DNA from: Teretinema zuelzerae
GTDB taxonomy: Bacteria > Spirochaetota > Spirochaetia > Treponematales > Treponemataceae
Length of the DNA: 64,000 nt
NCBI RefSeq assembly: GCF_021021555.1
Contig: NZ_JAINWA010000003.1
Location: 558,001-622,000, forward strand
Direction of reading: 5' to 3'
This document shows, piece by piece, positions 22,738 to 23,944 of the stretch. Both the position numbers and the translations under genes were made by a program. The notes beneath the pieces were generated by a model. It did no database searches, was not told the DNA's origin, and saw only the letters and a list, made by a program, of their open reading frames with translations. Numbering within the stretch: position 1 is the stretch's first letter; every line of letters begins with the position of its first letter.

Positions 22738-23631
22738 TTACTTTTTCTCCGGATAGGTTGAGATAATCATTTCCGCGCGGCTCCACGACGCCTTCTCAGG
22801 CGATGAAAGGGCTGAGTCGAGGGCTTTAACGAAAAAACCGCGGGTGACTGCGGCGAGGCCGGGAGACGCTCCGTTGACCTCCAAAAGCGACGAGAAGGCG
22901 CTGTGCAAGCTTGACTCCTCCGTGCAGGCGATGGCCTCGATGCGGTCGTCTCCCCACGGTTCGGTCGCGACCAGGGCGAAGGTCGACTGAGGCGGCGGAA
23001 TGACGACGGTCTCTCCAGCGCGCACGGCCGACCCCTCGTGGTAGGAATTCGGAAACAGGAGAATAGTGGTTCCGTCGCTCTGATGGTCCAGAAGGATCAG
23101 ATGGCAGTCCCGGTCTGCGGTCACCGCGAATGAAATCGTTTCGCCGCCTACGACCACGGATCTCCCGCTTACGGGAGCGAGACTGAGCGAAAATTCCCGC
23201 GGAATCTTCGCTTCGATTTTTTGAAGATCCTGAACCGAAGAAAGAGAAGCCTCCCAACGCGTCAAAAGGAGCTGCTGTTCGGAACGAGGGTAGCGGACCA
23301 TCACCCAGGCCTTCCAGTTTCTGCCGAGAAGCTCGGTGCCCCGATCGGTGATTTCGCAGGAAAGGAGCGCAAACTCCCGGGGAGGCACGAGGCCTGCCTC
23401 GCGGATCGCCGGCGTAATCCCGATGCGGTTCATCAGCATGGAACGGGCCGCGTCGAACGCCGCGGCCACCGCTTCCTGTTCGGTTCTATAGCCAGACGCC
23501 GACGCCGGTTCGTAGAGATACAGGTCGTCGTCCCGGTGAGGGCTGTCCCACCACCACGGCTGTCCGGCCTGTACTGGAGCAGTATATAGAGCGAGTAGAA
23601 AAACGATCAAGGGAATCGCGCTTTTTTTCAT
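22738..23631 (-). CDS. Secreted DUF4384 domain protein
   Basis: The 297-residue protein has a signal peptide (cleavage after about residue 23, PVQAG). Its first half resembles LPP20/DUF-type domains of surface proteins (about residues 45-140), and its second half matches DUF4384 (about 150-250), with the pattern GETISFAVTADRDCHLILLDHQSDGTTILLFPN. DUF4384 is found in secreted or periplasmic proteins of unknown role. The start at 23631 is chosen because a signal peptide follows and GGGAG precedes. A longer frame running into the tRNA gene is not credible. It forms an operon with the hydrolase. Confidence 0.85.
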   Translation of the reverse strand: MKKSAIPLIVFLLALYTAPVQAGQPWWWDSPHRDDDLYLYEPASASGYRTEQEAVAAAFDAARSMLMNRIGITPAIREAGLVPPREFALLSCEITDRGTELLGRNWKAWVMVRYPRSEQQLLLTRWEASLSSVQDLQKIEAKIPREFSLSLAPVSGRSVVVGGETISFAVTADRDCHLILLDHQSDGTTILLFPNSYHEGSAVRAGETVVIPPPQSTFALVATEPWGDDRIEAIACTEESSLHSAFSSLLEVNGASPGLAAVTRGFFVKALDSALSSPEKASWSRAEMIISTYPEKK

Positions 23632-23723
23632 TGATCTGCATCTCCCGGATTTTTTGTGTGATTCGAGTATACAACGGTTTCGGGGCGAGTTCCATACGCA
23701 AAGCGAAGGGAGAAGTTCGTTCG

Positions 23724-23757
23724 GTTTCTCTATACCTACCGGTAGGTATAGAGAAAC
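23724..23757. repeat. Perfect 34-bp palindrome with TetR-operator-like centre
   Basis: Every base from 23724 to 23757 pairs with its mirror; the centre is TACCTACCGGTAGGTA. No T-run follows on either strand, so it is a poor intrinsic terminator. Centres of the form TACCnaCCGGtnGGTA are common in TetR-family operators. It lies between the DUF4384 gene and tRNA-Val. Confidence 0.75.
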
Positions 23758-23830
23758 ACCGTACAAATTCCCCAACAAGGTCTCGTCCCCGGACTCGCCT
23801 CCCGGATTTCCGGGCATTTGAGCTGAAAAA

Positions 23831-23868
23831 TAAAAAAAAAAGACTGTTTCAAAAGAAACAGTCTTTTT
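23831..23868 (-). terminator. Terminator of tRNA-Val
   Basis: On the minus strand a perfect stem (AGACTGTTTC, loop of four, GAAACAGTCT) is followed by a run of T. It starts 3 nt after the tRNA. The A-run in front of the stem could let it work for plus-strand transcripts as well. Confidence 0.9.
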
Positions 23869-23870
23869 CG

Positions 23871-23944
23871 TGGGCAATACTGGGATCGAACCAGTGACCC
23901 CTACCATGTCAAGGTAATACTCTAACCAGCTGAGCTAATTGCCC
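23871..23944 (-). tRNA. tRNA-Val (anticodon GAC)
   Basis: The 74-nt cloverleaf has the acceptor stem GGGCAAT/ATTGCCC, anticodon loop TTGACAT with anticodon GAC, and T-loop TTCGATC. The discriminator base is A and the 3' CCA is not encoded. It has its own promoter at 23988-24016 and its own terminator, so it is a single-gene transcript. Confidence 0.95.

What the first reader, a model, noticed from the sequence alone, without database searches (positions are those of the whole stretch)
23724..23757. Perfect 34-bp palindrome with a TetR-like centre
A palindrome of this length with no loop and no mismatch is rare in chromosomal spacers unless under selection. The centre TACCTACCGGTAGGTA resembles TetR-family operators, but no TetR gene lies in the window. 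It is also a candidate cruciform or RNA hairpin at the end of a transcript.
Basis: seen in the sequence. Interest (0 to 1): 0.5.

Follow-up and report, generated by a model that had tools for sequence, protein, structure and literature searches.

The report
Dispersed operator of a TetR-family repressor
The perfect DNA palindrome is one of about 27 copies of what looks like the landing site of a sugar-linked TetR-type repressor encoded elsewhere in the same spirochaete genome; in this genus the site has multiplied across the chromosome, partly inside hairpin-forming repeats.

Summary
The 34-bp palindrome (23724-23757) is real and far beyond chance: arm 17, against at most 13 in 60 simulated windows. 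It is not a lone spacer feature. Its 16-bp core TACCTACCGGTAGGTA occurs 21 times exactly plus 6 near copies in the 3.6-Mb genome; the reversed-pattern control finds none. One copy lies between the -35 and -10 boxes of a TetR-family gene beside a GH13 amylase. The same core precedes tetR homologues in congeners and other spirochaetes. In the genus, eight genomes with a close orthologue carry 2-27 sites; four without carry 0-1.

Best reading: a predicted operator of this autoregulated repressor, whose site set expanded within one genus and includes several glycoside hydrolase genes. Some sites lie at convergent gene ends or inside genes, and the window copy is absent beside both DUF4384 homologues found in congeners, so its local role is uncertain. 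Long arms were seen in this species only (5 tested). At 12 other loci the core tips a dispersed hairpin repeat; at the window it does not. Binding was not tested. New member of a known kind.

The parts
23724..23757 (.). perfect 34-bp palindrome, 17-nt arms, no loop
23733..23748 (.). 16-bp core TACCTACCGGTAGGTA, predicted operator of the TetR-family protein of locus L025 (G000:C3, about 0.46 Mb away)
   Evidence: 21 exact and 6 near copies in the genome; one in the tetR promoter
23707..23773 (-). imperfect extension of the hairpin on both sides of the palindrome; approximate limits
   Evidence: minus-strand fold, z -4.7; not a match to the hairpin element model beyond the core
22738..23634 (-). 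DUF4384 protein gene, nearest gene start, about 90 bp from the palindrome; possible but unproven target
23836..23869 (-). terminator-like hairpin of the tRNA gene
23870..23944 (-). tRNA-Val(gac), upstream neighbour

Best explanation
The core is an operator for one TetR-family repressor encoded about 0.46 Mb away on the same contig (G000:C3, locus L025, next to a GH13 amylase). The protein would bind the palindrome and repress its own promoter, where the site fills the spacer of TTGACA-N17-TATACT; an unknown ligand, probably a sugar, would release it. In this genus the site spread: here to 23 places, among them next to GH5, GH3 and GH13 genes. The window copy is one of that set; there it either tunes the DUF4384 gene or is a bound site without strong local effect. 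Shown here: the copies, the promoter position, conservation, and co-occurrence of sites with the TetR gene. Inferred: binding, repression, ligand, and any effect at the window. I put binding of the core by this protein at about 0.85 and the whole statement lower.
For: 21 exact and 6 near copies of the core, 0 for the reversed pattern. One copy fills the promoter spacer directly before the start of a TetR_N protein (E 4e-15) and another precedes the adjacent GH13 gene. Of 41 tetR homologues examined (of 80 fetched), 20 have the core within 2 mismatches in the 200 bp upstream, 17 of the 20 closest among them. In the genus, 8 genomes with a close orthologue hold 27, 27, 20, 16, 14, 10, 7 and 2 sites; G006 with a 33% homologue holds 1, in front of that gene; G001, G004 and G010, with no match, hold 0. 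The core variant and its flanking bases differ by species and resemble those at the species' own tetR. GH5, GH3 or GH13 genes border several sites, GH3 in three species.
Against: No binding was tested. Several sites are not in promoters: convergent junction after rubrerythrin (L017), after accA (L026), inside a nitrogenase-type gene (L022) and a gene with a sub-threshold radical-SAM match (L018). Many neighbours are housekeeping genes. No promoter-like match lies between the window palindrome and DUF4384, and both congeneric homologues of that gene lack the site. G002 has the orthologue but only 2 sites, both at the tetR locus. G004 has one core with 1 mismatch but no orthologue found (77% complete). 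18 of the 41 homologues have more than 3 mismatches or none within 5. Another TetR_N gene of this genome has a different but related palindrome (TACCGAACGTTCGGTA) near it, so sister regulators with similar sites exist.
Confidence: 0.72

Rival explanations
1. A dispersed hairpin repeat (REP or MITE-like): the core multiplies as the tip of a structured repeat and need not regulate anything.
For: 12 of 13 distinct copies of a hairpin element in this genome carry the core at the stem tip; stems vary but pair within each site in this species (6.85 of 12 pairs against 3.92 across sites); flanks of several sites are alike.
Against: In the other four species tested the arms do not pair beyond chance. 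In other species nearly all element hits lack the core. 11 of the 23 clusters here, the window's among them, are not element hits. Some cores lie inside coding sequence. The core tracks the tetR gene. The model was built in part from core-bearing copies, so the 12 of 13 is biased.
Confidence: 0.12
2. A chromosome-marking or division-linked TetR-family protein in the manner of SlmA or RefZ, with sites scattered for architecture and not for transcription.
For: Sites at gene ends and inside genes; an 849-kb stretch that holds dnaA has no site, p 0.009 if C3 is circular.
Against: The other large contig shows no such gap (p 0.88). Outside the genus the 47 other relatives searched have 0-2 cores. 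The test in a second species found no dnaA in the 800 kb read and gave no answer. The protein sits beside an amylase gene in its relatives.
Confidence: 0.06
3. An RNA hairpin in the leader of the DUF4384 transcript or an end-of-transcript signal.
For: Strong fold on both strands, z -4.7 and -4.3; 34-bp palindrome about 90 bp before the gene.
Against: Any perfect palindrome folds. It was not called terminator-like and the tRNA has its own. Across species the core is kept, not the stem.
Confidence: 0.05

Closest known systems
PaaR operator of Burkholderia cenocepacia (TetR-type; PMC2770484, passages read)
   Same: Overlapping inverted repeat ACCGACCGGTCGGT between -35 and -10, needed for repression; the core here differs from it by two symmetric positions.
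   Different: PaaR controls phenylacetate genes in a proteobacterium; here the gene next to the regulator is a GH13 amylase, and up to 27 sites are scattered over a genome.
RefZ of Bacillus subtilis (abstract and outline of PMC6657595) and SlmA of E. coli (search listing only)
   Same: TetR-family proteins with several scattered palindromic sites that are not ordinary promoter operators.
   Different: The L025 protein scores only 43.9 bits on the RefZ model (cut-off 180); it lies beside a sugar gene and has a promoter operator. Role in division untested.
REP or MITE-type repeats (known to me from memory)
   Same: Dispersed palindromes, mostly between genes.
   Different: The part that is constant across species is a 16-bp protein-site-like core; stems vary or are missing.

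Membership tests
Operator of an autoregulated TetR-family repressor | A TetR-family gene in the same genome with the site in its own promoter | tested here: met
   L025: TTGACA-N17-TATACT filled by the core, TetR_N E 4e-15
Operator of an autoregulated TetR-family repressor | Site conserved upstream of orthologous regulators | tested here: met
   within 2 mismatches in 20 of 41 homologues examined, 17 of the 20 closest
Operator of an autoregulated TetR-family repressor | Sites co-occur with the regulator across species | tested here: met
   8 genomes with a close orthologue: 2-27 sites; 4 without: 0-1
Operator of an autoregulated TetR-family repressor | The window copy overlaps a promoter | tested here: not met
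   no promoter-like match between palindrome and DUF4384 start
Operator of an autoregulated TetR-family repressor | The protein binds the site | not testable with these tools
   needs EMSA, footprinting or DAP-seq
Dispersed hairpin element of the genus (model R1) | The two conserved feet around the hairpin | tested here: not met
   window hit covers only model positions 33-70, 12.9 bits, E 0.56
Intrinsic terminator | Hairpin followed by a T run | tested here: not met
   only the tRNA hairpin at 23836-23869 was called
SlmA/RefZ-type chromosome marker | Non-random site distribution relative to origin and terminus | tested here: inconclusive
   C3 gap p 0.009, C1 p 0.88; no dnaA in the part of G005 read

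The most novel reading that the evidence does not exclude
A local amylase repressor became a chromosome-wide DNA-binding protein within one spirochaete genus. Its operator was multiplied partly by riding on the tips of a dispersed hairpin repeat, and its sites at gene ends and inside genes serve as roadblocks or chromosome marks as well as for repression.
Probability: 0.15. Interest if true: 0.75.

Novelty: new member of a known kind. Interest (0 to 1): 0.45.

Why it matters
It turns an isolated palindrome into a testable regulator-site pair with a natural series: species with 2 and species with 27 sites for orthologues of the same TetR protein. That would allow one to follow how a local autorepressor gains a genome-wide set of sites, and whether repeats carry operators to new genes. 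In the four literature searches made (listings only, the first two showing 15 of 38 and 15 of 294 papers) I saw no description of this regulator; of the four core variants searched as text, only ACCGACCGGTCGGT was found, in two papers on phenylacetate genes.

Tried and rejected
Hairpin-element origin of the window copy: not supported, model R1 matches only the core there. Conserved control of DUF4384: not supported; the gene was found in 3 of 12 genomes of the genus and the other two lack the site. Terminator: not supported. Rfam: over 14 loci three matches reached the gathering score, two tRNAs and a cobalamin riboswitch, none at the sites; over six element loci one match at E 0.76, below its gathering score. 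Test of an origin-proximal gap in a second species: no dnaA hit in 800 kb of G005 C1 and no clear skew, so no answer. PDB sequence search: 219 sequences, those listed nearly all TetR-type regulators, none pointing to a ligand for this protein that I could use. Paper listings on TetR, spirochaetes and amylase held nothing that looked relevant.

Parts of sets used: one search used isolated sites only (20 of 27 in G000, 11 of 16 in G011, 5 of 7 in G007, 4 of 20 in G003, 10 of 26 in G005); its second measure, the best local match of the flanks, separates own from cross only weakly in G000 (17.7 against 14.2, sd 7.1). One search used 41 of the 80 homologues fetched, chosen by me, most of the nearer ones among them. 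Pfam was run on 25 chosen proteins, not on every neighbour. In one search at most 150 candidates per genome were scored (150 of 971 in G000). The neighbours come from a simple longest-ORF rule and include spurious frames. The output was cut, so shared neighbours may be missed; some of its rows are shadow frames of the real gene.

Full report
Observation. The 34-bp perfect palindrome is present at 23724-23757. The second-best perfect palindromes in the window have arms of 8, and the longest arm in 60 simulated windows was 13.

It is a repeated site. The 16-bp core occurs 21 times exactly and 6 times with 1-2 mismatches in the 3.62-Mb genome (G000); the pattern read backwards occurs 0 times. In 800 kb of a congener (G005 C1) the degenerate core with up to 2 mismatches hits one place only, with two neighbouring copies, so there is little background of half-good sites.

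Which protein. In L025 one copy fills the spacer of TTGACA-N17-TATACT directly before the start of a 192-aa protein with a TetR_N domain (E 4e-15). A second copy precedes the next gene, a GH13 amylase. TetR and amylase neighbours with a site close by recur in six congeners' or relatives' loci read here, including G020 of the same family and G048 of the same order. Of 41 homologous tetR genes examined (of 80 fetched), 20 have the core within 2 mismatches in the 200 bp upstream, 3 have 3 mismatches, 11 have 4-5 and 7 have none within 5; among the 20 closest, 17 have it within 2. Several of these named records are the unnamed congeners again (contig lengths agree: SZUA-475 with G005, SZUA-416 with G003, Spiro_10 with G011, SZUA-438 with G002, SZUA-377 with G007, Brucepastera parasyntrophica with G028), so they are not independent. 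Of the 8 TetR_N places in G000 only this one has the core beside it; one other gene has the different palindrome TACCGAACGTTCGGTA near it.

Species pattern. The eight genomes of the genus with a close tetR orthologue hold 27 (G000), 27, 20, 16, 14, 10, 7 and 2 sites. G006, with a 33% homologue, holds one, before that gene. G001, G004 and G010, with no match, hold none; G004 had one hit with 1 mismatch under the first pattern. Completeness of these genomes is 72-99%. The 47 relatives outside the genus had 0-2 hits. Core variants differ by species and resemble the local tetR operator. Tandem copies at 31-48 bp are common.

Where the sites lie. In G000 the 27 sites form 23 clusters. Neighbours include GH5 (L011, start 55 bp away; L021, about 320 bp), GH3 (L013, 182 bp upstream; L021, 8 bp after its stop and 86 bp before a MatE gene), GH13 (L025), the end of a TonB-plug receptor gene (L019; its match L052 in G011 also ends in the site) and an aldose epimerase some 770 bp away (L030). 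But sites also lie at the convergent junction after rubrerythrin (L017), after accA (L026), and inside a nitrogenase-type gene (L022) and a gene with a sub-threshold radical-SAM match (L018). Five site-bordering gene matches besides tetR link G000 to a congener: GH3 to two species, an ABC exporter (35% identity only), tex and prfC. About 1 would be expected by my rough estimate, which no call computed. Alignment of such pairs gave a mixed answer: the core is kept in register at aroA (G003/G005, one copy), at GH3 between G000 and G011, and inside an FtsJ-like gene (G007/G011), but not at prfC, pyrF, ABC-F, nor for G003 at GH3.

The long arms. Beyond the core, arms pair within the same site in G000 (6.85 of 12 against 3.92 across sites) but not clearly in G011 (4.27 against 3.88), G007 (4.40, 3.65), G003 (3.25, 2.92) or G005 (2.40, 3.17). 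Much of this comes from copies at the tip of a hairpin element with feet GGGGGTGGC-GGA and GGA-GCCAGGGGGA. Paired changes support its inner helix (13 cells with a change on both sides against 3.6 in shuffles; the outer three pairs have none); the structure was read from the same sequences. No Rfam match was found for it. In G000, 14 hits include one likely assembly duplicate (98.99% over 2,677 bp, gaps only); by position 12 of the other 13 carry the core. In other species, by position, 0 of 10 (G011), 1 of 8 (G007), 0 of 9 (G003) and 1 of 8 (G005) hits do. The model holds core-bearing copies, which biases the G000 count. The window palindrome does not match the element beyond the core, though its flanks extend the hairpin imperfectly.

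Role at the window. The nearest gene start is DUF4384, about 90 bp away. No promoter-like match lies between them, and the homologues in G009 and G004 (52% and 44% identity) have no site in the DNA read around them. I therefore hold the binding-site reading firmly (about 0.85 for binding) and any regulatory effect here loosely.

Comparison. The core resembles the PaaR operator ACCGACCGGTCGGT, also between -35 and -10 (passages). Scattered sites of a TetR-family protein recall RefZ (abstract and outline) and SlmA (listing), but the distribution tests were split or empty.

Noticed in passing
L089, L091-L095, L061, L016:8787-8896, L235-L243: A dispersed structured element of the genus: GGGGGTGGC-GGA-AAA, a variable stem, then TTT-GGA-GCCAGGGGGAnCCGCG; 0-14 hits per genome, no Rfam match.
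   Followed up: partly
L235, L236, L237 (G011): Copies of that element follow gene ends in the same orientation, 2-3.5 kb apart on one contig, which recalls a cassette-like arrangement.
   Followed up: no
G000:C1:1601500-1604152 (L240) and L011: The end of contig C1 repeats a stretch near its start (98.99%, 27 gaps, 0 mismatches over 2,677 bp): C1 may be circular, or the assembly overlaps itself; dnaA lies on C3.
   Followed up: partly
L030:3771-4010: A tandem array of a 19-bp unit (actttcatg.ctgcacagt) runs right up to a core site.
   Followed up: no
L055:4006 and L062:1428: The core lies inside an FtsJ-like gene of G011 and inside its match in G007, in register, in a stretch where the proteins differ (PTGRY kept).
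   Followed up: partly
G000:C3, from 1692717 round to 552501: An 849-kb stretch that includes dnaA has no site (p 0.009 if C3 is circular).
   Followed up: partly
G000:C1, near 1329650 (L184, L186): A second TetR_N gene has a related but different palindrome, TTACCGAACGTTCGGTAA, shortly before it.
   Followed up: no
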